Part shown: positions 37,327 to 63,530 of the stretch, in pieces | How positions within the stretch are numbered: position 1 is the first letter of the stretch | Layout of the letters: the number at the start of each line of letters is the position of its first letter | Origin: Roseococcus microcysteis | GTDB taxonomy: Bacteria > Pseudomonadota > Alphaproteobacteria > Acetobacterales > Acetobacteraceae | Length of the DNA stretch: 64,000 nucleotides | Assembly: GCF_014764365.1 (NCBI RefSeq) | Contig: NZ_CP061718.1 | Coordinates: 372,001 to 436,000, forward strand | Direction of reading: 5' to 3' | The notes under the pieces: model-generated | What the model saw: only the letters and a program-made list of their open reading frames with translations | What the model was told of the DNA's origin: nothing | Databases searched by the model: none | Program-made: the position numbers and the translations under genes

Positions 37327-38719
37327 GCACCACCCAGGGCGAGCCGCGCTGGCGCTGGTTCGGCTGGCTGCGCCCGCGCACGCTCGCCGGCCGCACCGCG
37401 CTGGTGCTGGTGGTGGGGCTGATGTCCGTGCAGGGGCTGGGCCTGACCATCCACGCCTTCGACCGCATCGAACTGCAACGCGCGGCCGAGGCGCGTTACA
37501 TCTCCAACCGCATCATCGGCCTGTGGCGGGTGCTGGCCACCGCGCCGCCCGAACGCCGAATCGCCCTGCTGGCCGAGGCCGAATTCCCCCCGAGGTGACC
37601 GCCACGCTGGAGAGCACCCCCCGTGCCAAGCCCGACATGCCCCCCGTGGCCCCGGGCCATGCGCGGCTGTTCCGGCTGGAGGGCCCGCCGCCCATCGTGG
37701 CGCGCCGCCTGCGCCCGGCCGATGTCGTCTCCGGCATGGCCGGGCCTTCGCATATCGTGATCTCGCTGCGCTTCGCCGACCCGCCCTGGGCGCCGCCCGC
37801 CTGGCTGAACCTCTCCATGCGCGTGCCCGCCCCCCGGCCCTGGCATTCCGACCGCTTCCTCTTCGCCTTCGCGGCCATGTCGGTCACGGCGCTGCTGCTC
37901 ATCCTCTGGGCGGTGCGGCGGCTGACGCGGCCCGTGGCGGACCTCGCGGCCGCGGCCGAGCGCCTGGGCCGCGACGTAAACGCGCCCGCTTTGCCGGAGA
38001 ACGGCCCGCGCGAGGTCGCCCAGGCCGCCGCCGCCTTCAACGGCATGGCCAGCAACATCCGCCGCTTCGTGGCCGACCGCACCCAGATGCTGGCCGCCAT
38101 CAGCCATGACCTGCGCACACCCATCACCCGGCTGCGGCTGCGTGCCGAATTCATGGATGACGAGGACCAGCAGCGCCGCATGCTGGCGGACCTGGCCGAG
38201 ATGGAGGCGATGATCGCCTCCACGCTGGCCTTCGCCCGCGACGACGCGGCGGCGGAACCCGCGAGCCCGCTGGACCTGGCCAGCCTCGCCCGCACCGTGC
38301 TGGACGAGGCGAGCGACGCCAACCCCGACATGGCCGAGCGCATCCATTACGAGGGGCCCGAGCATTTCGTGATGCCGTTGCGGCCGCTGGCCATGAAGCG
38401 CGCCTTGGGCAACCTGGTCGCCAATGCGCTGAAATACGGCGATGCGGCGCGGCTGACGCTGGAACCGCGCGGCGGCGGCGCCTGCCTGGTGCTGGAGGAT
38501 GACGGGCCGGGCATTCCCGACCACTCCCACGAGAAGGTGTTCCAGCCCTTCCAGCGCATCGAGGGCAGCCGCAACCGCGAGACGGGCGGCACGGGCCTCG
38601 GCCTCACCATCGCGCGCAGCATTTTCCGGGCGCATGGCGGGGAGGTGACGCTGCACAACCGCCCGGCCTCGGGCGAGGACCAGGGCGGGCTGAGGGTGGT
38701 GATGCTGCTGCCGGGGTGA
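37323..38719 (+). pseudogene. EnvZ-like sensor histidine kinase, broken by a one-base shortfall in a C6 tract
   Basis: The TTG at 37323 overlaps the regulator stop. The first frame encodes a membrane segment (ALVLVVGLMSVQGLGLTIHA) and ends at TGA 37596-37598. The rest reads in another frame: periplasmic region, second membrane segment (FLFAFAAMSVTALLLILWAV), HAMP, phosphoaccepting His in AAISHDLRTPITRLRLRAEF, N-box NLVANALKYGD, G1 DDGPGIP and G2 GTGLGL. Adding one C to the run at 37586-37591 joins EAEFPP to EVTATLES and gives a 465-residue EnvZ-type kinase. All functional motifs are intact, so an assembly or slippage artefact is more likely than decay. Confidence 0.85.
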
Positions 38720-38754
38720 TAGCCAGGGGCGGACCCCGGAACGGAGACCCGCCC

Positions 38755-39393
38755 ATGGCCCTCAAGGCCGCCATCCTCCCCGTCACCGCCTTCCAGCAGA
38801 ATTGCGCCCTGGTCTGGGACGACACGACCCTGCGCGCCACCGTGATTGACCCCGGCGGCGATGTGGCGCGCATTCGGCAGGTGCTGGCGGAGCAGGGGCT
38901 GGAGCTGGAGCAGATTCTGCTCACCCACGGCCACATAGACCATGCCGGCGGGGCGGATGAGCTGCGCGAGGCCTCGCCCGGCGTGCCCGTGGTGGGGCCG
39001 CACGTCGCGGACAAGATGCTGCTGGACAATCTGGAGAAGCAGGCCTCCGCCTATGGGCTTGTGGCGCGCAACCTCACGCCCGACCGCTGGCTGACGGAGG
39101 GCGAGACGGTCACCATCGCCGGCCAGGACTTCGCGGTGCTGCATTGCCCGGGGCATTCGCCGGGCAGCGTGGTCTTCGTCTCCGAGGCGCTGCGGATCGC
39201 CTTCGTGGGGGATGTGCTGTTCCAGGGCTCCATCGGCCGCACGGATTTCCCCTATGGCGACCATGACGCGCTGATCGGCGCCATCATGACCAAGCTGATG
39301 CCGCTGGGCGACGACATCCAGTTCCTCTGCGGCCATGGCCCGGGCTCGGATTTCGGCACGGAGCGGCGGACGAACCCCTTCCTGCCACGCTGA
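38755..39393 (+). CDS. metallo-beta-lactamase-fold hydrolase (YcbL/glyoxalase II-like)
   Basis: A 212-residue MBL-fold hydrolase starting at ATG 38755 (GGAGA upstream). Zinc ligands: LLTHGHIDHAGGADEL (HxHxDH), LHCPGHSPGSV with a third His, IAFVGDVLFQGSIGRTD with the bridging Asp, and the final His in LCGHGPGSDFG. This set and length fit the YcbL type II glyoxalase group, which hydrolyses S-lactoylglutathione or similar thioesters. It follows the kinase gene by 35 bp, possibly read through. Downstream is a repeat-rich intergenic stretch. Confidence 0.88.
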   Translation: MALKAAILPVTAFQQNCALVWDDTTLRATVIDPGGDVARIRQVLAEQGLELEQILLTHGHIDHAGGADELREASPGVPVVGPHVADKMLLDNLEKQASAYGLVARNLTPDRWLTEGETVTIAGQDFAVLHCPGHSPGSVVFVSEALRIAFVGDVLFQGSIGRTDFPYGDHDALIGAIMTKLMPLGDDIQFLCGHGPGSDFGTERRTNPFLPR

Positions 39394-39707
39394 TTTCCTT
39401 GACTTTCTTCAGTTTTTCAGGGCATTGTGCGGGTTGCCGACGCCCTTCCCATGCCCGCCGCGTGCGGGGCACGGGTAAGATAGTAAGATGGTAAGATAGT
39501 AAGATAGTAAGGCGGCCGGCCCGAAACGGGGCCCCCGCGAAGACGCCGAAGGCGGTTTCGTGGGGAATACTTCGGGGCCCCCGCGAAGACGCCGAAGGCG
39601 GTTTCGTGGGGAATACTTCGGGGCCCCCGCGAAGACGCCGAAGGCGGTTTCGTGGGGAGTAATTTGGGGCCCCCGCGGCAGCGCCGCAGGCGATGTCGTG
39701 GGGAGTG
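39394..39707. other. 314-bp non-coding gap with AT-rich entry and two repeat arrays
   Basis: Between the convergent metallo-hydrolase and hemN stops no credible gene is seen. It holds an AT-rich opening with TTGACT (39399-39404) and, 17 bp on, GCATTG (39422-39427), which could be a promoter; then an 8-bp microsatellite (39475-39512) and four 46-bp hairpin repeats. Transcription from that promoter would yield a structured RNA, but this is conjecture. Confidence 0.55.
39475..39512. repeat. 8-bp microsatellite GTAAGATA, about four and a half copies
   Basis: GTAAGATA, GTAAGATG, GTAAGATA, GTAAGATA and a partial GTAAGG follow in series from 39475. Such AT-rich short tandem repeats are exceptional in this GC-saturated DNA and may vary in copy number between strains. 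Confidence 0.85.
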
Positions 39708-39711
39708 CTAT
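39528..39711. repeat. four tandem 46-bp hairpin repeats with compensatory stem change
   Basis: Copies start at 39528, 39574, 39620 and 39666. Each begins GGGGCCCCCGCG and ends in a GTGGGG-plus-spacer. Within a copy CCCC pairs with GGGG, CGAAG with TTTCG and CGCC with GGCG around a GAA loop. The fourth copy changes CGAAG to CGGCA and its partner to TGTCG, so the middle stem keeps pairing, including an A-T to C-G double change. The last copy reaches the hemN stop. The position between convergent genes suggests terminators. Confidence 0.88.
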
Positions 39712-41039
39712 ACGGCCGCGCTGTGCCTGCCGTTGCCGCTGTTCAGCCTGGCGTCGAAGCAGGAAGCGACATGCCGCAGGAAGGGCCGCGCCTCATCCGG
39801 CACCGTCAGCCAGGCGCCGGCCAGCCGCACCAGCCCATCGCGCTCCAGCCCCTGCAGCCCGGGCAGGGCGGATTGCAGCACCGCCGCCGGCAGCGTGTCG
39901 AGGTCCAGCGCCAGGTCGCACATCACCCGTTCGATGGCCGCGCGGCGGATGATGTCCTCGCCCGTGAGGGCGAGGCCACGGATCACGGGCAGCTTCCCCG
40001 CCTCGACGGCCGCCACATAGCCGCGCTCATCGGGGATGTTCTGCGCATAGCCCTGCGGCACCGCGCCGATGGAGGAAGCGCCCAGCCCCAGCAGCATCGG
40101 CGCGTCATCGGTGGTGTAGCCCTGGAAGTTGCGGCGCAGCCGGCCCGCCGCGGCGGCCCGCGCCATGGGGTCGGCGGGCCGGGCGAAGTGGTCGAGGCCG
40201 ATGGGCACGAAGCCTGCCGCGCGCAGCACGTCGGAGGCTTCCTGCGCCTGTTCCATGCGGGCGGCGGCATCGGGCAGGTCGCTCTCAAGGATCGCCTTCT
40301 GGGCGGGCTTCATCCAGGGCACATGGGCATAGCCGAAGACCGAGACGCGGTCGGCGCCGAGTTCCGCCGCCAGCGCCGCCGTCGCCGCCACATGGGCGCG
40401 GCTCTGGCCGGGCAGCCCATACATCATGTCGAGGTTGATGGCCGAAACCCCCGCCGCCCGCAGCCGCTCGACGGCGGTGCGCACCATCTCGGCTGGCTGG
40501 ATGCGGCCCATCAATTCCTGCACCTCCGGGTTCGCATCCTGCAAACCCAGCGAGGCGCGGGTGAAGCCCTCCCGCGCGAGCGTCGCCACCACCTCTTCGG
40601 TCAGCGTGCGCGGGTCCAGCTCGATGGAGAGTTCCGCATGCCGCGCGAAGGGATACAGCGCGCGCAGCTTGCCCATCAGCGCCGAGAGCCGGGCGGCGCC
40701 GAGCGCGCTCGGCGTGCCGCCGCCCAGGTGCAGGTGCTGCACGATGCCATCGGCGGGCAAAGCGAGGGCGAGCAGCCGCGCCTCGCGGTGCAGCGCCTCG
40801 GCATAGCGGGCGATGCGCTCCTCGTTGCGCGTCACCGAGGTGTGGCAGCCGCAATACCAGCACAGCTCATGGCAGAAGGGGATGTGGACGTAGAGGGAGA
40901 GCGCCTCGGCCGGCGGCATGCGGGACAGCCAGCCGCGATAGGTCGCCTCCTCCAGCGGGCCGAAATGCGGCGCGGTGGGGTAGCTGGTGTAGCGCGGCAG
41001 GTTGGCCTGGGCGTAGCCGGAGCGGTCGAGGAGCTTCAT
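39708..41039 (-). CDS. hemN: oxygen-independent coproporphyrinogen III oxidase (radical SAM)
   Basis: A 443-residue radical SAM enzyme that decarboxylates coproporphyrinogen III to protoporphyrinogen IX without oxygen. The [4Fe-4S] cluster motif is Cys56, Cys60, Cys63 and Cys65 in FCHELCWYCGCH, the CxxxCxxCxC spacing of true HemN. Other family blocks are NLPRYTSYPTAPHFG, HLGGGTPSAL, NLDMMYGLPGQ and GLDHFARP. It is monocistronic and read leftward from 41039. An FNR/FixK-like box lies 38 bp upstream, fitting low-oxygen induction. Its stop falls in the last of the 46-bp repeats. Confidence 0.93.
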   Translation of the reverse strand: MKLLDRSGYAQANLPRYTSYPTAPHFGPLEEATYRGWLSRMPPAEALSLYVHIPFCHELCWYCGCHTSVTRNEERIARYAEALHREARLLALALPADGIVQHLHLGGGTPSALGAARLSALMGKLRALYPFARHAELSIELDPRTLTEEVVATLAREGFTRASLGLQDANPEVQELMGRIQPAEMVRTAVERLRAAGVSAINLDMMYGLPGQSRAHVAATAALAAELGADRVSVFGYAHVPWMKPAQKAILESDLPDAAARMEQAQEASDVLRAAGFVPIGLDHFARPADPMARAAAAGRLRRNFQGYTTDDAPMLLGLGASSIGAVPQGYAQNIPDERGYVAAVEAGKLPVIRGLALTGEDIIRRAAIERVMCDLALDLDTLPAAVLQSALPGLQGLERDGLVRLAGAWLTVPDEARPFLRHVASCFDARLNSGNGRHSAAV

Positions 41040-41076
41040 GGGTCAGGATGCTGCCTTGTCGCTCCGTCCTATCGCC

Positions 41077-41090
41077 TTGCGCCTGATCAA
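41077..41090 (-). promoter_or_regulatory. FNR/FixK-like box upstream of hemN
   Basis: Read on the minus strand, TTGATCAGGCGCAA has a perfect left half (TTGAT) and a partial right half against consensus TTGAT-N4-ATCAA. hemN genes are commonly activated by FNR/FixK/Anr proteins, which makes the site plausible, but the right half is poor and no matching -10 box is obvious. It is shared with the divergent hydantoinase gene. Confidence 0.4.
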
Positions 41091-41128
41091 TCCAAGGACT
41101 TTGATATGTTGGAACCAGGAGTGCGGGC

Positions 41129-42577
41129 ATGAGCGAAGTGGAACTGGCGATCCGTGGCGGCATGATCGTGACCGCCGATGGCATGCGGCGGGCCGATGTG
41201 GGCATCGCGGGCGGGCGCGTGGTGGCGCTGGCGGAACGGATCGAGGGGGCCGCGCAAGTCATCGAGGCCGATGGGCTGTGGGTGATGCCAGGCGGCGTGG
41301 ACACGCATTGCCATATCGAGGAACCCAATGTCGCGGGCGGTCTCAGCGAGGAGAGCTTCATCACCGCCTCCCGCGCCGCCTTCGCGGGCGGCACGACCAG
41401 CACGGTCTCCTTCATTCCGCAATGGAAGGGCCATGGCATCCTGGAGCGCGCCGACGACTACGCCCGCCGCGCCGCCACCGGCATGCTGGACCACAGCTTC
41501 CACCAGATCATCACCGACCCGACCGACGAGGTGCTGGAGAAGGAGCTGCCGCAGGTGGTGGCGCGCGGCATCCGCAGCCTGAAGGTGTTCCTGACCTATG
41601 ACGCGGTACATCTGAGCGACGCCGAATATCTCCGCGTGCTGCGCGCGGCGCGGAAGCACCAATGCCTGGTCCATGTCCATTGCGAGAATTACGACGCCAT
41701 CAAGTGGCGCATCGAGGCGCTGCTGGCCGCCGGCATGACGGCGCCGAAGTATCACGCCTGGGCGCGCCCGCCCGTGGTGGAGCGCGAGGCCACGCACCGC
41801 GCCATCGCGCTGGCGGAACTCGTGGACCAGCCCATCCAGATCTTCCATGTCAGCTGCGCCGAGGTGGCCGAGGAGATCGCCGCCGCCCAGGCGCGTGGCG
41901 TGAAGGTCTGGGGCGAGACCTGCCCGCAATACGTCACGCTGACGGCCGACGACATGGCCCGCACCAGCGAAAAGGATGGCGCGTTCGAGGGGGCGAAGTT
42001 CATCTGCAGCCCCGCCCCGCGCGGGCCTGACGAGCATGAGCGCGTCTGGGACATGATCCGCCGCGGCGTGCTGGACGTCGTCTCCAGCGACCATTGCGCC
42101 TACAGCTTCGACGGACCCAAGGGCAAGCGGCAGAACGGCACGGACCGCTTCGACCTGATCCCGAACGGCATCCCCGGCCTCACCGCCCGCCTGCCCATCA
42201 TGTTCAGCGAGGGTGTCTCCAAGGGCCGCATCACGCCCGAGCATTTCGTGCGCCTGGTCGCCACCAACCCGGCCAAGATGCTGGGCCTCTGGCCGCGCAA
42301 GGGCGGCATCCATGTGGGGGCGGACGCCGATATCGCGCTGTGGGACCCACAGCACAAGCGCACGCTGACCAACGCCATGATGCAGCATGTGGCCGACTAC
42401 ACGCCCTATGAGGGCATGGAGGTCACGGGCTGGCCGGTGCGCGTGCTGCGCCGGGGCGAGAGCGTGATGCACAACGACAAGGTCACGGCCGAGCCCGGCA
42501 CCGGCCAATTCCTGCCCCGCGCGCCCTACGACATGATCGCCCCGCGCGGCATCACGCCCAACGGCTTCGCTGACTAA
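41129..42577 (+). CDS. D-hydantoinase/dihydropyrimidinase
   Basis: A 482-residue cyclic amidohydrolase. Binuclear metal site residues are all visible: His60 and His62 in DTHCHIEEP, Lys152 (carboxylated) in SLKVFLTYD, His184 in VHCEN, His240 in FHVSC and Asp321 in SSDHCAYSF. Such enzymes open hydantoins or dihydropyrimidines to N-carbamoyl acids. AGGAG precedes the ATG at 41129. Two Bug receptors follow on the same strand, one of which might deliver the substrate. It is unrelated in fold and mechanism to the ATP-dependent HyuAB at 5770-9563. Confidence 0.92.
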   Translation: MSEVELAIRGGMIVTADGMRRADVGIAGGRVVALAERIEGAAQVIEADGLWVMPGGVDTHCHIEEPNVAGGLSEESFITASRAAFAGGTTSTVSFIPQWKGHGILERADDYARRAATGMLDHSFHQIITDPTDEVLEKELPQVVARGIRSLKVFLTYDAVHLSDAEYLRVLRAARKHQCLVHVHCENYDAIKWRIEALLAAGMTAPKYHAWARPPVVEREATHRAIALAELVDQPIQIFHVSCAEVAEEIAAAQARGVKVWGETCPQYVTLTADDMARTSEKDGAFEGAKFICSPAPRGPDEHERVWDMIRRGVLDVVSSDHCAYSFDGPKGKRQNGTDRFDLIPNGIPGLTARLPIMFSEGVSKGRITPEHFVRLVATNPAKMLGLWPRKGGIHVGADADIALWDPQHKRTLTNAMMQHVADYTPYEGMEVTGWPVRVLRRGESVMHNDKVTAEPGTGQFLPRAPYDMIAPRGITPNGFAD

Positions 42578-42687
42578 GCAAGCGGCACAGGCCGCATGGC
42601 GGCGTCATCCGCCCGCAACCTTGTGATTGCGGCGGCGGGGCCGGTTGGTTAGCGTCGCTGCAATCAATCGGCAAGGAGGCCATTATA

Positions 42688-43656
42688 ATGAATCGGCGTG
42701 GGATTTTGGCCGCGGCGGGCGTCGGCCTGCTGGCGGCACCGGCGGTGCGGGCGCAGGGCGCCTGGCCCAACCGGACCATCCGCCTGGTCGCACCCTACGC
42801 GCCGGGCGGCTCGGTGGACGCGATGGCGCGCATCACCGCGCAGAAGCTCCAGGAACGGCTGGGCCAGAACGTGGTGGTCGAGAACCGTTCCGGCGCCAGC
42901 GGCACTGTGGGCGGGCGCTATGTCGCGCAGTCCGCGCCGGATGGCTACACTTTCTGCTTCTCGGCCAGCGTGCAGACGCTGGCGCGGCTGGTGCTGCGCG
43001 ACCCGGGCTATGACCCCATGGTGGACCTGGCGCCGGTGGCCCGCGTGGGGCAGGGGCCGCTGCTGCTGATCATGTCGCCGGGCCGCCCGCAGACCACCTT
43101 GCAGGAGGTGGTGGCCGCCATCCGCGCCAATCCGCGCGACTGGACCTTCGCCACCTCCTCGCTGGGGGCGGCGGGGCACCTCGCCACGGTGGAATTCATC
43201 CGCCAGCTGGGGGTCGAGGTGCCGATCGCGACCTATCGCGGCACCGGCCCCGCCCTGCCGGACCTGTTCGCCGACCGCGTCCAGCTCATCTTCGACCCGA
43301 TGCTGGCCACGCTGCCGCCGGTGCGCGCCAACCGCGCCAAGCCCGTCGCCATCACCTCGGCGCGCCGCAGCCCGGCGGCGCCCGAGGTGCCGACCACGGC
43401 CGAGGGCGGCATGCCGAGCGTGGACCTGCAATCCTGGTGGGCGATGTGGGGTCCGCGCGGCGTGCCGGCCGAGATCACGGAGCGCATCCAGCGCGAACTC
43501 TCCACCGCCATGCTGGAGCCCGACGTGGCGCAGCGCACGGTGACGCTGGGCATCGAGCCGCTGTTCCAGGGCGGGCAGGAGCTGGTGGACTTCATCCAGG
43601 CCGACTTCAACCGCACGCAGGAACTGCTCCGGATCGCGAACTTCCAGCCGGAGTGA
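42688..43656 (+). CDS. Bug/TctC-family substrate-binding protein
   Basis: A 322-residue Bug receptor beginning MNRRGILAAAGVGLLAAPAV (signal peptide) after a strong AGGAGG site. Family segments: WPNRTIRLVAPYAPGGSVD, VVENRSGASGTVGGRY and FATSSLGAAGHLATVEF. It lies 110 bp downstream of the D-hydantoinase. No TctAB subunits are present. Differences from the next receptor are spread over the whole protein, so these two are not a recent duplication, unlike the pair at 18452-20381. Confidence 0.9.
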   Translation: MNRRGILAAAGVGLLAAPAVRAQGAWPNRTIRLVAPYAPGGSVDAMARITAQKLQERLGQNVVVENRSGASGTVGGRYVAQSAPDGYTFCFSASVQTLARLVLRDPGYDPMVDLAPVARVGQGPLLLIMSPGRPQTTLQEVVAAIRANPRDWTFATSSLGAAGHLATVEFIRQLGVEVPIATYRGTGPALPDLFADRVQLIFDPMLATLPPVRANRAKPVAITSARRSPAAPEVPTTAEGGMPSVDLQSWWAMWGPRGVPAEITERIQRELSTAMLEPDVAQRTVTLGIEPLFQGGQELVDFIQADFNRTQELLRIANFQPE

Positions 43657-43667
43657 GGGCCGGGCAT

Positions 43668-43694
43668 ACTGCCTCCAACCACCAGGGAGGCAGT
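43668..43694 (+). promoter_or_regulatory. Shine-Dalgarno-sequestering hairpin before the second Bug gene
   Basis: ACTGCCTCC (43668-43676) is perfectly complementary to GGAGGCAGT (43686-43694), with a 9-nt loop. The right arm contains the GGAGG ribosome site of the gene at 43699, so the helix would hide it. The first Bug stop is only 14 nt before the hairpin; ribosomes arriving there could open it, coupling translation of the two genes. It might also act as a weak terminator, although no T-run follows. Confidence 0.6.
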
Positions 43695-43698
43695 CGCC

Positions 43699-44670
43699 AT
43701 GTCCACCATCACCACCGCGCGCCGGGCCGTGCTGCTCGGCGCGCTCGCCGCGCCTGTCGTCGCGCAGGCGCAGGGCGCCTGGCCGCAGCGCCCGGTGCGC
43801 GTCATCATCCCCTGGCCGCCGGGCGGCGGGGCGGACACGGTGGGGCGCATCCTCTTCGCGCGCGTGGCCGAGATCCTGGGCCAGAACTTCGTCATCGAGA
43901 ACCGGCCGGGCGCCACGGGCACCATCGGCGCCAACGCCGCCGTCCGAAGTGCCGCCGATGGCTACACGCTGCTCTATGACGCGACGGGGCTGTCCATCAA
44001 CCCGTTCCTGATGCCGCATCTGCCCTTCGACGTGCGGCGGGATTTGGTGCCGGTCTTCCTCTCCGCCGTGGTGCCGAACCTGCTGGTGGTGACGCCCAGC
44101 GTGCAGGTCCGCACGGTGCAGGACGTGATCACCCTCGCGCGCAACACGCCGGGCGGGCTGAACTGGGCCTCCTCGGGCAATGGCTCGGCGCAGCACATGG
44201 CGCTGGAACTGTTCCGGCAGATGACGCAGCTGCCGCTGACCCATGTGCCCTATCGCGGCGGCGGGCCGGCCCTGACCGACGTGATCGGCGGGCAGATCAA
44301 CTTCTTCTTCAGCAATGCCAGCGCCTCCACGGGCCATGTGCAGTCGGGCGCGCTGCGTGCGGTGGGGCATAGCGGCACGGGGCGGCTTGGCAGCCTGCCC
44401 GACGTGCCCGCCGTGGCCGAGACGCTGCCCGGCTTCGAGGCCTATGAGTGGAACGGCGCCTTCGTCCCCCGCGGCACGCCGGCCGAGGTCGTGCAGCGCC
44501 TCAACGCCGCCATGAACGAGGCCATCGCCCACCCGGCCGTCGCCGAGCGCCTGGCCGGGCTGAATGTGGGCACGCGCCGCAACACGCCGGACGAGTTCCG
44601 CGCCTTCCTGGAGGCCGAACTCACGAAGTGGGAGCGGGTGATCCGGGAGGGCAACATCCGGCTCGATTAG
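43699..44670 (+). CDS. Bug/TctC-family substrate-binding protein
   Basis: A 323-residue periplasmic Bug receptor: leader TARRAVLLGALAAPVVAQA, then WPQRPVRVIIPWPPGGGAD, VIENRPGATGTIGANAAV and NWASSGNGSAQHMALELF, with C-terminal RNTPDEFRAFLEAELTKWE. It follows another Bug gene after 42 bp that carries a helix masking its ribosome site, so its translation is probably regulated or coupled. No transporter membrane subunits are nearby; ligand unknown. Confidence 0.9.
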   Translation: MSTITTARRAVLLGALAAPVVAQAQGAWPQRPVRVIIPWPPGGGADTVGRILFARVAEILGQNFVIENRPGATGTIGANAAVRSAADGYTLLYDATGLSINPFLMPHLPFDVRRDLVPVFLSAVVPNLLVVTPSVQVRTVQDVITLARNTPGGLNWASSGNGSAQHMALELFRQMTQLPLTHVPYRGGGPALTDVIGGQINFFFSNASASTGHVQSGALRAVGHSGTGRLGSLPDVPAVAETLPGFEAYEWNGAFVPRGTPAEVVQRLNAAMNEAIAHPAVAERLAGLNVGTRRNTPDEFRAFLEAELTKWERVIREGNIRLD

Positions 44671-44706
44671 CTTGCTGCGCGCGGGCCTCGGGCCATTTCG
44701 CGCCGA

Positions 44707-45279
44707 CTATTTGCGAAGATAGAACGGCACCTTCCCCGTGGACCGCAGCGCGTGGTCCGCGGCGAAGAGGTCGGCATAGTGCAGCACATGCGCCTCCGGG
44801 TTCTCGGTGTGGAAGGGCGCGTTGGTGGCGTGGGTGGTGACGGTGCTGACCACGCGGTGGGGGAAGCCCAGCTCCTTCAGCAGCATGCCCCCCACCACGC
44901 CGTGCGGCAGCTCGCGGTAGAGGCGCGTGTATTCCGTCGGCGTGTAGAGCAGCGGCTTGTCCACATCATGCAGGATGAGGATGGACATCATCACGTCCCA
45001 GTCCAGCGTGATGCCCCAGTCGGCCATGGCGCGCTGCGCCAGGTCCACGCCCGCGCGCGTCACCTCGTTCACATGGTGGCCGAGCGGGTAGCTGGGCGTG
45101 GCGGGCTGGAACACCATGTCCTCCAGCTTCTCGTAGCTGGACGAGGCCCAGGTGGTGACCCATGCGGTCACGATGTCGTCCCGCACCTTGGGCGAGACGC
45201 GGTCCAGCCCCCAGAGCCAGTCGCTCACCGCCGCGCGCTGGTGGTTGGTGCCGGTGGTGATGGTGTAGGTCTCGCTCAT
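44707..45279 (-). CDS. HD-domain phosphohydrolase-like protein
   Basis: A 190-residue HD-superfamily protein. Candidate metal residues: His68/His69 (LGHHVNEVTRAG), the His104-Asp105 pair in LILHDVDKPL, His126 and His167-Asp170 in HYADLFAADHA. HD proteins hydrolyse phosphate esters or nucleotides; no known subfamily is recognised. It is translated from an ATG that overlaps the stop of the preceding aminotransferase gene (ATGA), so they form one unit with the DNA glycosylase upstream. Confidence 0.78.
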   Translation of the reverse strand: MSETYTITTGTNHQRAAVSDWLWGLDRVSPKVRDDIVTAWVTTWASSSYEKLEDMVFQPATPSYPLGHHVNEVTRAGVDLAQRAMADWGITLDWDVMMSILILHDVDKPLLYTPTEYTRLYRELPHGVVGGMLLKELGFPHRVVSTVTTHATNAPFHTENPEAHVLHYADLFAADHALRSTGKVPFYLRK

Positions 45280-46427: not shown

Positions 46428-46429
46428 GG

Positions 46430-47068
46430 TCAGGGGTCCTCGATCAGCGGGCGGCCCGTCTCGTGCCGCCAATGGTGCCAGAGCAGGCGCGCGGCCAGGC
46501 CACGCGCGGGCGACCACGCGGCCGCCATCGCGGCCAGCGCGCGCGGCGTGGGGCGTGTTTCCAGCGCGAAGAGGTGCCGCGCGGAATTGGCCAACGCGAT
46601 GTCGCCGCTTGGGAAGATGTCCGGCCGGCCTTCCGCGAAGAGCAGATGCACCTGCGCCGTCCAGGGCCCCAGCCCGCGCACCGCGCAGAGCATGGCCACC
46701 GCCGATTCATCGTCCAACTCCGCCAGCCGGTCGAAATCCAGCGTGCCATCGGTGCAGGCCAAGGCCAGCGCGCGCCCATGTGCCGCCTTGGGGCGCGACA
46801 GCCCCGCCACACCGCACAGCGCCGCGTCATCCAGCGCCAGGAACCCCGCCGGTTCCAGCGCGCCTGGCAGCGCCGAAAGCCGCCGCCAGATCGCCCCCGC
46901 CGCCTGGTTGCTGATCTGCTGCCCGCAGATGGTCCGCAGCAGTCCCGCGAAGCCGCGCGGGCGCGTGCGCCAGGGCAGGGGGCCTGCCCGCTCCTCGATG
47001 GCGGCGAAGCGCGGCTCGGCGGCGAAGAGGGCGGCGCGAAGGAAATCCACGCCGCAGGTTTGACGCAA
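46430..47068 (-). CDS. DNA-3-methyladenine glycosylase II (AlkA-like, HhH-GPD)
   Basis: A 212-residue helix-hairpin-helix DNA glycosylase of the AlkA type. The HhH reads VRGLGPWTAQVHLLF, and the catalytic Asp lies in the following FPSGDIAL, the AlkA arrangement. There is no iron-sulfur cluster motif, unlike MutY/Nth. It excises alkylated purines. TTG 47068 or GTG 47050 are both possible starts; homology starts at about the GTG. It is divergent from the RraA-like gene, so the start codon lies within the shared promoter region. Confidence 0.86.
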   Translation of the reverse strand: MRQTCGVDFLRAALFAAEPRFAAIEERAGPLPWRTRPRGFAGLLRTICGQQISNQAAGAIWRRLSALPGALEPAGFLALDDAALCGVAGLSRPKAAHGRALALACTDGTLDFDRLAELDDESAVAMLCAVRGLGPWTAQVHLLFAEGRPDIFPSGDIALANSARHLFALETRPTPRALAAMAAAWSPARGLAARLLWHHWRHETGRPLIEDP

Positions 47069-47088: not shown

Positions 47089-47112
47089 GCGCCCCCTACG
47101 GAGGAATTCGCC

Positions 47113-48312: not shown

Positions 48313-48313
48313 C

Positions 48314-53338: not shown

Positions 53339-54946
53339 ATGAAAAGCTTCTGGCAACGCGCGACGCTGGGGGGGCTGGCCGCGATGGGCCTCGCCCTCGT
53401 GGCCGGGCAGGCGCAGGCGCAGCCGCGCAACCAGATCACGATCATGCGCGAGATCGACGCCGACCGTTATGACCCCGCGCGCTCGACGGCACTGGCCGCC
53501 GGCGAGGTCATCACCATGCTGTCCGACACGCTGGTCAGCATGGACTACGACATGCGCACCATCCGCCCCGGCCTCGCCGAGCGCTGGGACGTGTCGGAGG
53601 ACGGCCTCACCTACACCTTCCATCTGCGCCAGGGCGTCACCTTCTGCGACGGCACGCCCTTCACCGCGGAAGCCATGGCCTTCAGCCTGAACCGCTGGAT
53701 CGGCCGCACCACCCCGCGCGTGACCTCGCCCGTCGCCTGGCGCGCGGGCGATGTGAAGGAAATCCGGGCCACCGGCCCGCACACGCTGGTCTATGAGCTG
53801 AACCGCCCGCATTCGGAGCTGCTGCCCAACCTCGCGCAGTTCTTCGCCTCGGCGCTGGACCCCGCCGCGGTGGAGCGGCTGGGCGACAATTTCGGCGTGC
53901 AGGGCTTCAACGGCACCGGCCCCTTCTGCTGGGAGAGCTGGACGCCCCGCAACCAGCTGGTGCTGACGCGCCACCCCAACTACCGCTGGGGCCCGCCGGT
54001 GATGCAGAACCAGGGCCCGGCCCATGTGGAGCGCATCGTCTGGCGCGTGATCCCGGAGGCCGCCTCGCGCGTGGCCGCGCTGCAGTCCAACCAGGCGGAT
54101 CTGACGCAGTACATCCCCGACGCCTTCATCGAATCCCTGCGCCGGGTGCCCACGGTCACCATCGACACGCAGCCCAACTACCTGTGGGACACCTATCTGG
54201 GCTTCAAGGTGGACCGCCCGGTGGCCAATGACATCGCCATCCGTCGCGCCTTCCACATGGCGGTGGACCGGCCGGCCATGGTGCGCGCCGTGTGGTCCGG
54301 CAATGCGCGGCCCGCGCGCGGCATCATCAACCCCACGGCACTCGACTACTACGAGGCCGGTGACCAGGGCGTGCCCGCCTTCGACCCCGCCGCCGCCCGC
54401 CGCATGCTGGACGAGGCCGGCTGGCGCGCCGGGCCCGATGGCGTCCGCGTGAAGGACGGCCAGCGCGCCACGCTCACGCTCTTCGCCATCAACAACCTGG
54501 TGAACCAGCGCCTGGGCGAGATCATCCAGCAGGCCGTGCGCCAGGTGGGGATCGAGCTGCGCGTGCAGCTCTTCGACGCGACGGTGGCCTGGGGGCGCCT
54601 GGCCAGCCAGGACTTCGACGTGCTGTTCCTGAGCTACCCCTACATCTCGGCCAATGACGCGCTGAACCTCTACTGGCACAGCCGTTCGCGGCCCACGCCG
54701 AACCGCATGAACTGGAACGACCCGCAGACCGACGCCTGGCTGGAAGAAGGCCGCTCGGCGACGGACCCCGCGGTGCGCGCGCGCGCCATGGCGGACCTCC
54801 AGCGCCAGCTCAATGAAAGCTCGGCCTGGATGAACATCGCGCACAACAACCTGAACCTGTTCAGCACCCGCCGGGTGGAGGGCGCGCGCGCGCACGGCCT
54901 CTACGGCATCGCGATCTACAAGGGCCTGGACCTGCGGGTCCGCTGA
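53339..54946 (+). CDS. ABC transporter periplasmic substrate-binding protein, family 5 (peptide/opine type)
   Basis: A 535-residue family 5 solute-binding protein starting at ATG 53339 (GGGAGA upstream). Signal peptide: RATLGGLAAMGLALVAGQAQ. Family blocks: NQITIMREIDADRYDPARST, LAERWDVSEDGLTYTFHLR, FCDGTPFTAEAMAFSLNRW and DIAIRRAFHMAVDRPAMVRA. It is not a lipoprotein (no lipobox). Family members bind di/oligopeptides, glutathione or other amides. The flanking amidohydrolases suggest the ligand contains an amide bond. Confidence 0.92.
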   Translation: MKSFWQRATLGGLAAMGLALVAGQAQAQPRNQITIMREIDADRYDPARSTALAAGEVITMLSDTLVSMDYDMRTIRPGLAERWDVSEDGLTYTFHLRQGVTFCDGTPFTAEAMAFSLNRWIGRTTPRVTSPVAWRAGDVKEIRATGPHTLVYELNRPHSELLPNLAQFFASALDPAAVERLGDNFGVQGFNGTGPFCWESWTPRNQLVLTRHPNYRWGPPVMQNQGPAHVERIVWRVIPEAASRVAALQSNQADLTQYIPDAFIESLRRVPTVTIDTQPNYLWDTYLGFKVDRPVANDIAIRRAFHMAVDRPAMVRAVWSGNARPARGIINPTALDYYEAGDQGVPAFDPAAARRMLDEAGWRAGPDGVRVKDGQRATLTLFAINNLVNQRLGEIIQQAVRQVGIELRVQLFDATVAWGRLASQDFDVLFLSYPYISANDALNLYWHSRSRPTPNRMNWNDPQTDAWLEEGRSATDPAVRARAMADLQRQLNESSAWMNIAHNNLNLFSTRRVEGARAHGLYGIAIYKGLDLRVR

Positions 54947-54973
54947 AGCAGTAAACGGCAAGGAAGCACCACC

Positions 54974-56405
54974 ATGGCCACCACGCTGATCAAGGGCGCC
55001 GAACTCATCGTCGCCTGGGATGCCTCGGAAAAGCGGCATGTCTACATGCCCGATGCGGACCTCGCCTTCGAAGGGGGCGTCATCCGCTTCGTCGGCCGGG
55101 GCTATGACGGCGTGGCGGACAAGGTGGTGGACGGCACCGGCATGCTGGTCATGCCGGGCCTCGTGAACATCCACTCGCACCCGACCAGCGAGCCGATGAA
55201 CAAGGGGCTGCTCGACGAGATCGGCAGCCCCGGCCTCTACAATTCCTCCCTCTATGAGTTCATGCCCATCTTCCGCTCGGACGCGGAGGCGGTGCCGGAC
55301 TGCGTGCGCGTGGCGCTGAGCGAGCTTCTGCTCTCCGGCGTCACCACGCTGTGCGACCTGTCCATGGCGCATCCGGGTTGGCTCGACCTGCTGGCCGAGG
55401 CCGGCATGCGCGTTTGCATCGCGCCGATGTTCAAGTCGGCGCGGTGGTTCACCAAGAACGGCCATGTCGTCGAATATGAGTGGGACGAGAAGGCCGGCGA
55501 GAAGGCGATGGAAGAGGCCTTCACCCTCATCCAGCGCGCGGAACAGCACCCCTCGGGCCGCCTCTTCGGCATGGCCTGCCCCGCGCAGATTGACACCTGC
55601 ACGCCCGAACTCCTGCGCGACAGCCGCGCCGAGGCCCGCGCCCGCGGCATCTCCTGGCAGATCCACGCCGCGCAGTCCGTGGTGGAGTTCCACGAGATCA
55701 CGCGCCGCCACGGCTTCACGCCCATCCAGTGGCTGCACGAGATGGGGCTGCTCGACCAGCAATCCATCATCGGCCACGGCATCTTCCTGGACGACCATCC
55801 GAGCACGCCCTGGCACACGGACCGCGACCTCTCGATCCTCGCCGAGACGGGCACCACGGTGGCCCATTGCCCGACCGTCTTCGCGCGGCGCGGCATCACC
55901 ATGAAGGATTTCGGGCGCTATCACCGCCGCGGCGTGAACCTCGGCGTGGGCACCGACACCTACCCGCACAACATGCTGGATGAGCTGCGCCTCGTGGCCT
56001 ATCTGGCCCGCACCCAGGCCAACGACCCGCGCACCACCACCACCAACGACATCTTCAACGCCGCCACCATCGGCGGCGCGAAGGCGCTGGGGCGCGACGA
56101 TATCGGCCGCCTCGCGGTCGGTGCCCGCGCCGACATCGTGCTGGTGGACGCGACCCATCCGCGCATGCAGCCGCGCCACGACCCCGTGCGCAGCCTGATC
56201 TACGCCGCCGGCGACCGCGCGGTGAAGGACGTCTTCGTGGATGGCGAGAAGGTGGTGGAGAATGGCGAGGTCCTGACCATGGATTTCCGCCAGGCCGCCG
56301 CCCATCTGGCCGAAGCGCAGAAGCGCATCACCGCCAAGGCCACCCAGCAGGACTGGGCACACCGGCCGGTGGACAAGATCGCCCCCCCACCTTCAAGTGG
56401 CTGTG

Positions 56406-56406
<1 letters not shown>
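54974..56406 (+). CDS. amidohydrolase (TRZ/ATZ, cytosine-deaminase-like) with a C-tract frameshift at its C-terminus
   Basis: An amidohydrolase of the ATZ/TRZ type. Metal site: [26 protein letters not shown] and [10 protein letters not shown], typical of mononuclear deaminases/amidohydrolases. As read, the frame does not close until 56632, inside the next gene, ending in unrelated sequence. One more C in the run at 56382-56388 would give the ending APPTFKWL and stop at TGA 56404-56406, whose A is the first base of the ATPase ATG. That TGATG coupling is normal here, so I annotate the restored 477-residue end. Function: second hydrolase of the ABC operon. Confidence 0.85.
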
Positions 56407-57395
<989 letters not shown>

Positions 57396-57407
57396 CCGTT
57401 TGCGCCA

Positions 57408-57455
57408 CCGATTCACGCCTTCGGGCGCCGCTGCGCGCCACCCTTCTGCGATCGG
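57408..57455. repeat. CCGATTCACGC...GCGATCGG element, copy 2
   Basis: CCGATTCACGC (57408-57418) and TGCGATCGG (57447-57455) bound a 48-bp unit between the two ATPase genes. Its ends match copy 1 at 53271 but the interior differs, and CCGAT/ATCGG can pair. It is immediately followed by the GGAGG ribosome site of the DppF-like gene. The family is not identified. Confidence 0.6.
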
Positions 57456-57462
57456 AGGCGGC

Positions 57463-58509
57463 ATGACCGTGTTGCTGGACGTCGAGAACCTCGCCAAGCA
57501 CTACCCCGTCCGCAAGGGCGCCATCCTGGCCAAGCAGGTCGGGCTGGTGCGCGCGGTGGATGGTGTCTCCTTCACGCTCAACCGCGGCGAAACCCTGGCC
57601 CTGGTGGGCGAGAGCGGCTGCGGCAAATCCACCACCGCGCGCCTGGTGCTGCGCCTCATCGAGCCCACCACGGGGGCCGTGAAGTTCCAGGGGACCGACA
57701 TCACCACGCTGGATGGCGCGACGCTCAAGGGCTTCCGCCGTCGCGCGCAGATCGTCTTCCAGGACCCCTACGCCTCGCTCAACCCGCGCTACACGGTGGG
57801 GCAGACCATCGCGGAGCCGATGGAGGTCCACAACATCGGTGACGCCGCCTCCCGCAAGGCCCGCGTCGAGGAATTGCTGAAGCTGGTGGGCCTCGCGCCC
57901 TATCACGCGCAGCGCTACGGGCATGAGTTCAGCGGCGGGCAGCGGCAGCGCATCGGCATTGCCCGCGCGCTGGCCGTGGAGCCGGACCTCGTGGTGTGCG
58001 ACGAGCCGGTCTCCGCGCTCGACGTCTCCATCCAGGCGCAGGTGGTGAACCTGCTGCGCGACCTGCAGCGGCGCCTCGGGCTGGCCTATCTCTTCATCGC
58101 GCATGACCTCGCGGTGGTGAAGCATGTGGCCGACCGGATCGCGGTCATGTATCTCGGCCGCATCGTGGAAATCGGCGAGAAGCGCGCGCTCTTCTCCAAC
58201 CCGCGCCACCCCTACACGCGGGCGCTGCTGGCCGCGATCCCGCACCCGGACCCCTCGCGCAAGGGCCGCGTGACACCGCTCGGCGGCGACGTGCCCAGCC
58301 CCATGAACATCCCGCCCGGCTGCCGCTTCCACACGCGCTGCCCCTACGCGCAGGACATCTGCCGCCAGCAGGATCCGGTGCTGAAGAATGGCGTGGCCTG
58401 CCACCTGGCCGATGAACTGCCCCCGGCGGGGGTGGACTTCGCCGGCGGCCTGGCCCCCAATGCGGCGAAGCGGCTCGCCCTCTACGCGGAGGCGGCCGCG
58501 CGGACATAA
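57463..58509 (+). CDS. ABC transporter ATP-binding protein, DppF/OppF-like
   Basis: A 348-residue ATPase starting at ATG 57463 (GGAGG upstream). Walker [18 protein letters not shown]-loop [13 protein letters not shown], signature [16 protein letters not shown], Walker [13 protein letters not shown], switch [10 protein letters not shown] and Cys-rich C-terminal segment [17 protein letters not shown]. It completes the importer with the DppD-like ATPase, two permeases and one receptor. The gap to the previous gene holds a structured repeat. Confidence 0.93.
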
Positions 58510-58528
58510 CTCGCGCAAGAGGAAACGC

Positions 58529-59701
58529 ATGGTCCAGGCGATCGTGGCCCCCCGTCAGATGCTGGTGGGGGCGGGAAGCATCGCGCGGCTGGGGGCGCTG
58601 CTCGGTCAGTTCGGCTTCTCCCGCCCGCTGGTGGTGACGGACCCCTTCATGGTCTCCTCGGGGCTGGTCGAACGCTGCCTCGCCCCGCTGCGCGAGGCCG
58701 GCATGACCCCTGTCGTGTTCCACGAGACCGTGCCCGACCCGACCGACACGGTGATCGAGGCCGGCGTCGCCGTCCTGCGGGGCGGCGATTACGACGTGCT
58801 GCTGGGCTTCGGCGGCGGCAGCCCGATGGACACGGCCAAGGCCATGGCCATCCTCGCCGCCGCGCCGTCCGGTGCGAAGATGCGCGACTTCAAGGTGCCC
58901 GTGGCGGCGGATCGCGGCGCGCTGCCCGTCATCTGCGTGCCCACCACGGCCGGCACGGGCAGCGAGGCCACGCGCTTCACCGTCATCACCGACACCGAGA
59001 CCGATGAGAAGATGCTCATCGCGGGCCTGGGCGCCCTGCCGCTGGCCGCCGTGGTGGACCATGAGCTGACCTTCACCCTGCCGCGCCGCATCACGGCCGA
59101 CACGGGCATCGACAGCCTGACCCATGCGCTGGAGGCCTTCGTCAGCCAGCGCGCCAACCCCGTCTCGGACATGTATGCGCGGGAGGCGATGCGCCTGATC
59201 GGCCCCAACCTCCGCCCCGTCTATGCCGATGGCGGGAACGCCGCGGCGCGCGAGGCGATGATGCTGGGGGCGACGCTGGCGGGGCTCGCCTTCTCCAACG
59301 CCTCGGTGGCGCTGGTGCATGGCATGTCGCGGCCCATCGGCGCGCATTTCCATGTGCCGCATGGCCTTTCCAACGCCATGCTGCTGCCGGCGGTCACGCG
59401 CTTCAGCCTGGATGCCGCCCTGCCGCGCTATGCCGAGGCCGCGCGCTGCATGGGTTGCGCCGCGCCGAGCGATGCCGACCAGGTGGCGGGGGCCAAGCTG
59501 CTGGAGGAACTGCGCGCCCTGAACACGGAGCTGGAGGTGCCCACCCCCGCCGCCTGGGGCATCGAGGAGGCGCGCTGGAACGGGCTGCTGCCCACCATGG
59601 CGGCGCAGGCGCTGGCCTCGGGCAGCCCGGGCAACAACCCGCGCGTGCCGGCGGCGGAGCAGATCATGGCGCTGTATGCGGAGGCCTATCGGGGGGCCTG
59701 A
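58529..59701 (+). CDS. iron-containing alcohol dehydrogenase (maleylacetate reductase-like)
   Basis: A 390-residue group III (iron-dependent) alcohol dehydrogenase. NAD site LGFGGGSPMDTAKAMA; the metal ligands lie in ADTGIDSLTHALEAFVS (Asp, His) and HGMSRPIGAHFHVPHG (two His). ATG 58529 has GAGGA upstream. It is last of the operon beginning at 49783 and would reduce or oxidise an aldehyde/alcohol or maleylacetate produced from the imported amide. Specificity is not readable. Confidence 0.9.
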   Translation: MVQAIVAPRQMLVGAGSIARLGALLGQFGFSRPLVVTDPFMVSSGLVERCLAPLREAGMTPVVFHETVPDPTDTVIEAGVAVLRGGDYDVLLGFGGGSPMDTAKAMAILAAAPSGAKMRDFKVPVAADRGALPVICVPTTAGTGSEATRFTVITDTETDEKMLIAGLGALPLAAVVDHELTFTLPRRITADTGIDSLTHALEAFVSQRANPVSDMYAREAMRLIGPNLRPVYADGGNAAAREAMMLGATLAGLAFSNASVALVHGMSRPIGAHFHVPHGLSNAMLLPAVTRFSLDAALPRYAEAARCMGCAAPSDADQVAGAKLLEELRALNTELEVPTPAAWGIEEARWNGLLPTMAAQALASGSPGNNPRVPAAEQIMALYAEAYRGA

Positions 59702-59727
59702 CGCCCGCCGGCTTCATCCCGCAGGCC

Positions 59728-60866
59728 TCATCCCGCTTGGGACGCCCGCCAGCGGTCCACCCAGGCGGACAGGGCGGCCAGCGGCAGCGGGCGGGCCAGC
59801 CAGAAGCCCTGGGCCCGCTCCACGCCCAGGTGGCGCAGCGAACGCCAGATGGCGGCGGTGGAGACACCCTCCGCCGTCATGCTCAGCCCCTGCCGCGCCA
59901 GCCGCCGCACCTGCTGCCGCGCCCGGGCGGAGGTGGCGAGGCTCTGCACGAAGTCCTTGTCGAGCTTCACGCCGGAGAAGGGCAGGCGCAGCAGGCGCCG
60001 CCGCCGGTCATCCATCTCGAAATCATCAATCAGCACCTGGTGGCCGCGCGCGCGCAGCCGCCGCACCGAACGGCCCAGGCGCGAGAAGTCGCGCACGGGT
60101 GAGGTCTCGGTCAGTTCGATGGCCAGGCGGTGGCGCGGCATCCGGGCCGCGCGCAGCTGGTCCGCGATCCAGGAGAGGGTGTCGCGCTTCTCCAGCTCAT
60201 CCACCGGCAGGTTCACCGAGACGGCGAGGCCCGCGGGGGTGCCGTTGCGCATCAGGTCGCTCGCCGCGATGCGGGCCACGGCGGCGGCCAGGCGCCGCGC
60301 CAGCCCCGCGCGTTCCAGGGCGGGCACGAAGCTGCCGGGGCCGAGCGCCACCGGGTCGCCCCGCCAGCGCGCCAGGGCCTCGACCATGACGAGGCGGCGG
60401 TCGCGCACGCGGACGATGGGCTGGTAGCGCAGCAGCAGCCCGTCATCCCCATCGAGCCGCCGCGCCATGCCCGCGAGGCCGCCGCCACGCGGCGTGGGGG
60501 GCGCGGGGGGCCGCCCGTCAGCGCCGCGCGGATGCGCGCTTCCAGCTCGGCGGGCGGGGCATGGGCGGGCAGGGGCAGGATGGTGGCGCCGGGCGAGGCC
60601 TCGGCCAGGGCGTCGAGCAGGGTGGATTCCACACCCGTCATGCTCTCCTGGAGGAAGAGGTGCGCGAAGCCGCCCCTGCCTTCCAGCACCGCGGCCATCA
60701 GCGCGGCATGCCCGTCGAGCACGATGGGCGGCTCCACCCCGGCCCGGGAGGCGGCGGCCCGGACGGCCTCGGCGAGCCGGGGGTCGCGCGTCACCACGGC
60801 GATGCGAGCGGCCGGAGCGGCTTCGGCGGGCTCCGCCTTGGGCCTGGATGTCTCGTTCTGGGGCAA
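59728..60866 (-). pseudogene. EAL-domain protein with receiver-like N-terminus, split at a C6 tract
   Basis: The first part, from TTG 60866 (AGGTG upstream), has a receiver-like segment without the phospho-Asp (ARIAVVTRDPRLAEAVRAAA). The second part is an EAL domain: MVEALARW, SVNLPVDEL, LAIELTETS, VLIDDFEMDD, VKLDKDFV, AEGVSTAA and QGFWLARP. The loop usually DDFGTG is DDFEMDDRRRR, so cyclic-di-GMP hydrolysis may be reduced. The frames meet at C6 tracts (G6 at 60496-60501 and 60505-60510 on the plus strand); one extra C restores a 379-residue protein. Start codon uncertain. Confidence 0.72.
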
Positions 60867-60948
60867 AGGCACCTGGAAATGCGAACAGTGCGGTAGCCTA
60901 TACGCCGCGCCGCCCCGTCTCAATGCCTGGACAGGGCGGGGCGGAGCC

Positions 60949-63530
60949 TTACGGCGTGGCAACCTCCTTCTTTTCGCCGGCGCCCTCCGCAGCCAGGCCG
61001 GGCCGCAGGCGCTTCGCCCCGGTGAAGAGCACGATGGGGGCGGCGATGAAGATGGAGGAGGAGGTGCAGAGCACCACGCCGAACAGCATCACCCAGGCGA
61101 AGCCCGCCAGCGTGGCGCCGCCGAACAGCGCCAGCGGCAGCACGGCCAGCGCGAGCGTCATGGAGGTGCCGATGGTGCGGTTCAACGTCTCGTTGATGGA
61201 GAGGTCCACCACGTCGCGCAGCGGCATCACCTTGTAGCGGCGAAGGTTCTCGCGCATCCGGTCATAGACCACGACCTTGTCGTTCACCGAGAAGCCGATG
61301 ATGGTCAGGATGGCCGCGATGGTGGTCAGGTTGAACTCGATCTGGAACAGCACCATGAAGCCCACGGCCTTGGTGGTGTCCAGGATCAGGGTGATGAGGG
61401 CGGCGAAGCCGAACTCCCATTCGAAGCGCACCCAGATATAGACCATCATGGCCAGCAGCGAGAGGCCGAGCGCGATGAGCCCGCCCTGGAACAGCTCGGC
61501 CGAGATGCGGTTGCCCACGGCCTCCACGCGCAGCACGCGCAGCCCCTCCTGCGCGCCTTCCAGCGCGGCACGGACGCTGTTCACCACGGCCTGGGTCTGC
61601 GCCTCGTCATTGGGCGCGGCCACGCGGGCCAGGACCGTGTTCTCGTCGCCGAAGCGCTGCAGGCCGACATCGCCGGTGTCAAGACCGGCCACGGCCGCGC
61701 GCATGGCGGGGAGGTTCGCGGGCTCCGGCGTGCGGACCTCCATGATGATGCCGCCCTGGAAGTCGATGCCGCGCTGCAGCCCCGGGTAGAAGGCGCCGAT
61801 GACGGAGGCGGTGGAGAGCAGGCCCGAGACGACGAGCCCCATGACCGCCCCCTTCATGAAGGGAATGCGCGTCACATCCGGCACGATGCGGAAGAGGGGG
61901 CGGCGCAGCCGCTCCATCAGCCCCACGCCGGGCTTCTCGATGACCGGCAGCTCCTTCGGGCGGCGCCAGCGATACCACCAGACGGTGAAGAGGCGGACCA
62001 GCACCGTGGCCGTCCACATCTGCGCCAGGGTGCCGATGGCGACCGTCACCGCGAAGCCGCGCACCGGGCCCGAGCCGAAGCCATAGAGGAAGCCCATGGC
62101 GATCAGGTTGGTCAAATTGGCGTCGAGGATGGTGCCGGAGGCCTTGGTATAGCCCGTCTCCAGCGCCGAGAGGGGGGAGCGGCCATTCTTCACCTCCTCC
62201 CGGATTCGCTCGTTGATCAGGATGTTGGCGTCGAGCGCCGTGCCCAGCGTCAGCACGATGCCCGCAATGCCGGGCAGGGTGAGTGTCGCTTCCAGCAGCG
62301 ACATGGCCGCGATCAGCAGCAGGATGTTGATGCCGAGCGCGATGTTCGCGATCCAGCCGAACAACCCGTAGGCGAAGCCCATGTAGAGGAAGACGAAGAG
62401 GAAGCCGGCGGCGAGGCTGATGAGGCCCGCGCGGATCGCGTCCTCGCCCAGCTCGGGCCCGACGGTGCGCTCCTCGACCACCGTCAGCGGCGCGGGCAGG
62501 GCGCCGGCGCGCAGCAGCACGGCCAGGTCATTGGCGGTGCGGACGGTGAAGCTGCCGCTGATCTGCCCGCGGCCGCCCGTGATGGGCTCGCGGATCACGG
62601 GGGCGGTGATGACGCGGTCATCGAGCACGATGGCGAAGGGCCGGCCCACATTGGCGCGGGTGATGTCCGCGAAGCGGCGCGTGCCGATCGAATCGAAGCT
62701 GAAATTCACCACCCATTCGCCGGTGCGGCTGTCCTGGGCGGCGCGGGCGTCGTTCAAATTCGCGCCATCCACCTCCACGCGGCGGCGCACGGCGAAGCGC
62801 TCGCCCGTCTGCTCGCCGGTCAGGAACATGACGCCGGGGGGGCGGTGATGGCCTGGAGGTTGGCCGTCTCGTCCAGCAGATGGAAGGTCATCCGCGCGGT
62901 GCGGCCCAGCAGGTCCTTGATGCGCTGGGGGTCTTCCACGCCGGGCAGCTGGACCAGGATGCGGTTGGCACCCTGGCGGGCGATCAGCGCCTCGGCCACG
63001 CCCGTCTCGTCGATGCGGCGGCGGACGATCTCGATGGATTGCTCGACCGCGTTGGTCGCCTTGGCGCGCAGCCCGGCCTCGGTGATGGTGGCGGTGATGG
63101 TGCCATCCGGGCCGGCCGCCACCTCCATGTCGGGCTGCTGGTTGCCGGCGCTGACGGTGACGGGGTTCGCCAGCTCCCGGATGATGCGCAGGGCCGTGTC
63201 GCGCTGGGCGGGGTCCGTGATTCGCAGCTGCACCCGGCGCTGGTCGGGCTGGGCGGTCAGGCCGGTGTAGGAGATTCGCGGGGTGGCCTGGCCCAGGCCC
63301 CGGCGCGTGCCCTCGACCACCGCCTCCAGCCGCTCGCGCAGCAGGACGGAAGTGTCCACCTCCAGCAGCAGGTAGGACCCGCCGCGCAGATCAAGGCCCA
63401 GGTTCACCTGGCGCATGGGGAACCATTCGGGCGCGGAGGCGCGCGGGAAGAGGTTGGGCAGGCTCAGCAGCAGCGCCGCCAGGCACACGCCCAGGATGGA
63501 AAACGTCTTCCAACGCGAAAAATACATCAT
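60949..63530 (-). pseudogene. secDF: SecDF protein-export membrane protein, split at a C7 tract
   Basis: The upstream frame (from 63530/63527) holds the SecD N-terminus: membrane segment ILGVCLAALLLSLPNLF, VNLGLDLRGGSYLLLEVD and the periplasmic P1 region. It ends prematurely after a C7 run (G7 at 62836-62842 on the plus strand). The downstream frame has the rest of SecD (NILINERIREEVKNG, six membrane helices) and, without a stop, SecF (GIDFQGGIIMEV, VVVYDRMRENLRRYKVM). One extra C yields TAPPGVMFLTGEQ and an 860-residue SecDF. Because SecDF supports export, a real knockout is unlikely. Confidence 0.85.

What the first reader, a model, noticed from the sequence alone, without database searches (positions are those of the whole stretch)
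37586..62842. Four unrelated genes break at a coding-strand C6/C7 run, always one base short
The histidine kinase (37586-37591), amidohydrolase (56382-56388), EAL protein (60496-60510) and SecDF (62836-62842) each change frame at a run of six or seven C on the coding strand. In each case one more C rebuilds a standard protein, and each restored span has a length of 3n once that base is added. Shared polarity and context suggest a single cause. Other C7/G7 runs (8105-8111, 3057-3063) are intact, so the effect is not universal. Most likely this is homopolymer undercalling; slippage or -1 frameshifting is the alternative.
Basis: partly seen in the sequence, partly recalled or inferred. Interest (0 to 1): 0.75.

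Follow-up and report, generated by a model that had tools for sequence, protein, structure and literature searches.

The report
Homopolymer undercalling in a bacterial assembly
Several genes in this bacterial genome look broken only because runs of G or C came out one base too short, almost certainly a sequencing or assembly error rather than biology.

Summary
The four frame breaks are in the sequence. Against two close relatives (Roseococcus, roughly 90-95% DNA identity) each tract is net one base short, and the relatives' frames are open.

The effect reaches beyond the window and depends on run length. In cleanly alignable G/C runs this genome is shorter than G010 in 1 of 1888 runs of 4, 2 of 402 of 5, 3 of 87 of 6 and 8 of 18 of 7 or more, and never longer at 6 or more. 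The whole genome has no G/C run of 9 or longer; all 8 congeners checked have them.

In 620 kb I count 19 gene-level changes at G/C runs, all -1: 9 at C and 10 at G on the coding strand. The shared C polarity is therefore chance. Broken genes include secDF, pgi, trpE and panC. mutS and mutL are open and as long as in relatives.

Best explanation: homopolymer undercalling in a long-read assembly lacking adequate polishing. The platform is inferred; raw reads were not available, so real -1 mutations are disfavoured, not excluded. Ordinary; low interest.

The parts
37323..38719 (+). EnvZ-like sensor histidine kinase (HAMP, HisKA, HATPase_c) split into 37323-37598 and 37595-38719 at C6 37586-37591; net -1 against both relatives; response regulator 36610-37326 just upstream
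37586..37591 (+). C6 tract; C7 in G010, CCCCGCC in G003
54974..56632 (+). Amidohydrolase frame; the relative's stop maps to 56406, the window frame runs on to 56632 over the following ABC transporter gene (56397-57395)
56382..56388 (+). C7 tract; CCCCTCCC in G010, C8 in G003
59728..60872 (-). EAL-domain gene split between 60510 and 60496; 59728-60468 retains the EAL domain
60496..60510 (-). two G6 runs on + (C6 on the coding strand); net -1 against both relatives over this interval
60949..63530 (-). fused SecDF gene, one 860-aa frame in G010, split here into 62820-63530 (SecD N part) and 60949-62829
62836..62842 (-). G7 on + (C7 on the coding strand); G8 in G003, GGGGGGCG in G010
9520..9525 (+). 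G6 on the coding strand at the 3' end of a Hydantoinase_B gene (7869-9563); net -1 against G010; relative's stop maps to 9529
63577..63582 (.). intergenic G6; G7 in both relatives
3057..3063 (+). G7, equal in G010, frame intact (negative case)
8105..8111 (+). C7, no length difference against G010 (CCCCGCC), frame intact (negative case)
53368..53374 (+). G7, equal in both relatives, frame intact (negative case)

Best explanation
The four breaks are assembly errors. In this single-contig Roseococcus genome, G/C homopolymers of about 5 bases and longer are sometimes reported one base short, with a chance that climbs steeply with length (about 3% at 6, about 44% at 7 or more) and a ceiling at 8. 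Wherever such a tract falls inside a gene the reading frame appears broken. Shown here: sign, length dependence, ceiling, spread over unrelated genes on both strands and into intergenic sequence. Inferred: that the cause is long-read consensus calling without sufficient short-read polishing, and which platform.
For: (1) Net -1 at all four tracts against two relatives whose frames are open. (2) Length dependence in clean run pairs against G010, two samples pooled: shorter in 1/1888 (4), 2/402 (5), 3/87 (6), 8/18 (7+); longer in 5, 1, 0, 0. (3) Control pair G010/G003: at 6 or more, 24 equal and 1 different; its 1 and 4 frame changes are none of them at a G/C run. (4) Whole genome: 27 places with G8, none with G9; the 8 congeners have 12-67 G9 places. 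(5) 19 of 19 gene-level changes at G/C runs are -1, 9 C and 10 G on the coding strand; a second sample about 2.5 Mb away, predicted beforehand, gave 9. (6) Run shortening is also intergenic (267047, 354084, 435577). (7) Broken genes include secDF, pgi, trpE, panC, radA, degP, an unlikely set of real losses. (8) Substitutions still sit mainly at third codon positions on both sides of most breaks, e.g. SecDF 20/24 and 84/108 against G010. (9) Precedent: a 73% G+C Streptomyces PacBio assembly needed 205 indel corrections with Illumina, nearly all in G or C homopolymers (PMC4832174, passages).
Against: No raw reads or second assembly of this strain were available. Against G003, 2 clean G/C runs are longer in this genome (6 vs 5, 7 vs 6). 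pufL breaks at a short run (G4 against G5), outside the main length range. A8 tracts are not depleted (8 against 2-10 in relatives), so the effect looks G/C-specific, though A/T runs are too few for a strong test. Exact-7 runs (300) are fewer than in the two closest relatives (388, 370) but not fewer than in all eight. The relatives are different species, so a recent true mutation is not excluded at any one tract.
Confidence: 0.94

Rival explanations
1. Real -1 slippage mutations accumulated in this strain (mutator or relaxed laboratory culture), leaving genuine pseudogenes.
For: Real slippage also rises with run length. The relatives are separate species, so strain-specific mutations are possible. 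pufL at a short run could be a genuine loss.
Against: 19 of 19 are -1 and none +1; no run of 9 or more survives; mutS and mutL are open and as long as in relatives; genes for central metabolism and protein export are hit; codon-position bias persists in most pieces.
Confidence: 0.05
2. Programmed ribosomal frameshifting or transcriptional slippage at the C runs makes full-length proteins.
For: Slippery homopolymers exist in all four genes.
Against: Both close relatives encode the proteins in one uninterrupted frame, in several cases with the run interrupted by another base, so no shift site is conserved. The breaks fall in many unrelated genes.
Confidence: 0.005
3. Phase-variable contingency tracts switching genes on and off.
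For: G/C tracts are typical of contingency loci (recalled).
Against: The genes are housekeeping rather than surface genes, the tracts are short (4-7 here), changes go one way only, and tracts are interrupted in relatives.
Confidence: 0.005

Closest known systems
Residual G/C homopolymer indels in PacBio-assembled high-G+C genomes (Streptomyces albus SM254, PMC4832174, passages seen)
   Same: 73% G+C, single-contig long-read assembly, residual indels nearly all in G or C homopolymers
   Different: There Illumina reads corrected them; here no reads are at hand and the platform is unknown
Gene-fragmenting false deletions in long-read assemblies (Kastor, PMC12007338, passages seen)
   Same: Mostly false deletions tied to homopolymers, seen by comparison with reference genomes
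   Different: In their 59% G+C genome A/T runs dominated; here G/C runs, with no sign at A8

Membership tests
Homopolymer undercalling artefact | Indels are deletions in homopolymers, one sign | tested here: met
   19 of 19 gene-level changes at G/C runs are -1
Homopolymer undercalling artefact | Probability rises with run length; long runs missing | tested here: met
   1/1888, 2/402, 3/87, 8/18 shorter at 4, 5, 6, 7+; no G9
Homopolymer undercalling artefact | Independent of coding strand and of coding status | tested here: met
   9 C, 10 G on the coding strand; intergenic cases 267047, 354084, 435577
Homopolymer undercalling artefact | Accurate reads show longer tracts than the assembly | not testable with these tools
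   no reads held
Programmed frameshifting | Slip site and split frame conserved in relatives | tested here: not met
   relatives have single open frames and often interrupted runs
Mismatch-repair mutator | mutS or mutL lost | tested here: not met
   both single over the cut-off, no stops, 865 and 580 aa open frames as in relatives
Phase-variable contingency locus | Both + and - length variants | tested here: not met
   only shorter at runs of 6 or more against G010; two longer against G003
Phase-variable contingency locus | Mixed tract lengths within a clonal population | not testable with these tools
   no reads held

The most novel reading that the evidence does not exclude
The strain truly carries a G/C-specific, contraction-only slippage mutator that has shortened long G/C tracts genome-wide and broken on the order of a hundred genes, some compensated by slippage during expression, despite intact mutS and mutL.
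Probability: 0.02. Interest if true: 0.75.

Novelty: not a real feature. Interest (0 to 1): 0.06.

Why it matters
It warns against reading this genome's pseudogenes, split genes or fused frames as biology: by extrapolation (inference) roughly 150 genes may be affected genome-wide. Gene absence calls from this record (for example pufL, secDF, pgi) should not be taken at face value. It teaches nothing new about mechanism.

Tried and rejected
Considered and rejected: programmed frameshifting, phase variation, mismatch-repair mutator (see rivals). A first gene caller picked wrong strands in this high-G+C DNA and was replaced by one seeded with codon-position substitution bias; only the second was used. 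Counts leave out frame changes not at G/C runs: in sample 1, 154078 (-1), 256485 (+1) and 543868 (-1, also in G003) against G010 and 464606 (+1 against G003, where G010 agrees with this genome); in sample 2, 2943366 (+1), 3054881 (-1), 3093055 (+1). The scan needs 45 bases in frame on each side, so it misses changes near gene ends; 9520 was found by hand. Clean run shortenings intergenic or within 30 bases of a predicted gene edge (200038, 267047, 275449, 354084, 435577, 2952853, 3003802, 3124238) are not among the 19. Codon-position counts were weak for short pieces: HK upstream 4/8 and 11/17; the EAL N part was phased one base off and gives 10/19 and 16/34 when I re-phase the printed counts by hand. 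Literature searches for this strain did not identify the record; that it may be R. microcysteis is recall only.

Full report
Origin. The window is bases 372001-436000 of a single-contig 4,208,010-base genome. Its SecDF half finds Roseococcus (Acetobacteraceae) as nearest named records. G003:C64 and G010:C3 have the same contig numbers and lengths as the R. thiosulfatophilus RB-3 and R. suduntuyensis DSM 19979 contigs in that list. Their aligned blocks with this genome are roughly 90-95% identical.

Observation. G010 encodes HK 465 aa, amidohydrolase 477, EAL 381 and SecDF 860 in single open frames with the expected domains. In the window, HK stops after 91 codons, SecDF after 236, EAL after 206, and the amidohydrolase frame runs past its stop into the next gene. 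The window holds 38 G/C runs of 6 or more. Two more -1 differences lie in it: 9520-9525, a coding-strand G6, and 63577-63582, intergenic.

Length dependence. I paired runs flanked by five identical bases on each side. Over 316 kb and 185 kb aligned with G010, this genome is shorter in 1 of 1888 G/C runs of 4, 2 of 402 of 5, 3 of 87 of 6 and 8 of 18 of 7 or more; it is longer in 5, 1, 0 and 0. Against G003 (99 kb), runs of 6 or more give 13 equal, 5 shorter, 2 longer. The control pair G010/G003 gives 24 equal and 1 different at 6 or more. Genome-wide, exact runs of 6: 1871 here, 1812 and 1907 in G003 and G010; exact 7: 300, 388, 370; 8 or more: 27, 65, 85 (places with G8 minus places with G9); G9 places: 0, 14, 19. 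Across all nine genomes this one has the fewest runs of 8 or more and alone lacks G9; for exact 7, three of the eight congeners have fewer. A8 places are 8 here against 2-10.

Frame census. Against G010 genes, sample 1 (312 gene pieces, 296,161 bases) shows 10 frame changes, 7 at G/C runs; the amidohydrolase (seen in the reciprocal scan), an SDR gene 3' end (seen against G003) and 9520 bring the total to 10. I wrote a prediction and then took a second sample about 2.5 Mb away (177 pieces, 174,458 bases): 12 changes, 9 at G/C runs, all -1. The prediction was 4-6 breaks, so the rate was higher than predicted; sign and strand balance were as predicted. It also said runs of 6 or less would nearly always be equal: 31 of 34 at length 6 were. 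Together: 19 events, all -1, 9 C and 10 G. Genes: EnvZ-like HK, amidohydrolase, EAL, secDF, NeuD-like acetyltransferase, pufL, CNNM/CorC-like, gmhA-like, SDR, Hydantoinase_B; radA, one unassigned gene twice, trpE, degP-like, rutB, panC, pgi, DUF3035. In the control pair, G010 against G003 genes gives 1 change and the reverse 4, none at a G/C run.

Real mutation or error. mutS and mutL are open and as long as in the relatives. Substitutions sit mainly at third positions in most pieces on both sides of the breaks: SecDF 20/24 and 84/108, EAL C part 20/26, HK downstream 47/64, amidohydrolase 58/65 against G010; short pieces are weaker. That speaks against old pseudogenes, not against very recent mutation. 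One-way sign, a ceiling at 8 and hits in central genes speak for error. PMC4832174 (passages) reports the same picture in a 73% G+C PacBio assembly; PMC12007338 (passages) reports false deletions tied to homopolymers in long-read assemblies.

Verdict. Extrapolating 19 events per about 471 kb of gene sequence gives roughly 150 genome-wide (inference).

Noticed in passing
genome C1 ~313601 (outside the window; locus L164): pufL (photosynthetic reaction centre L) has a -1 at a G4 run (G5 in G010): the shortest tract of the set, so a genuine loss is a little more thinkable here.
   Followed up: partly
window 14102-17575: Stretch without counterpart in the aligned G010 blocks, with a 729-aa frame carrying a UDP-galactopyranose mutase domain (14299-16488) and a 357-aa frame with no Pfam match.
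   Followed up: partly
genome C1 ~280.2-299.4 kb and ~468.9-530.4 kb: Two large stretches of this genome did not align with the G010 contig 3 sequence held; possible islands.
   Followed up: no
window 18452-20381: Two neighbouring minus-strand frames that cross-match each other's G010 counterparts at about 83%: a tandem paralogous pair.
   Followed up: no
genome C1 2108952-2109440: A frame with a weak SecD_SecF_C match is 932 aa here against 1047 aa in both close relatives, perhaps another break.
   Followed up: no
genome C1 ~2943366: A +1 change in a gene, not at a homopolymer.
   Followed up: no
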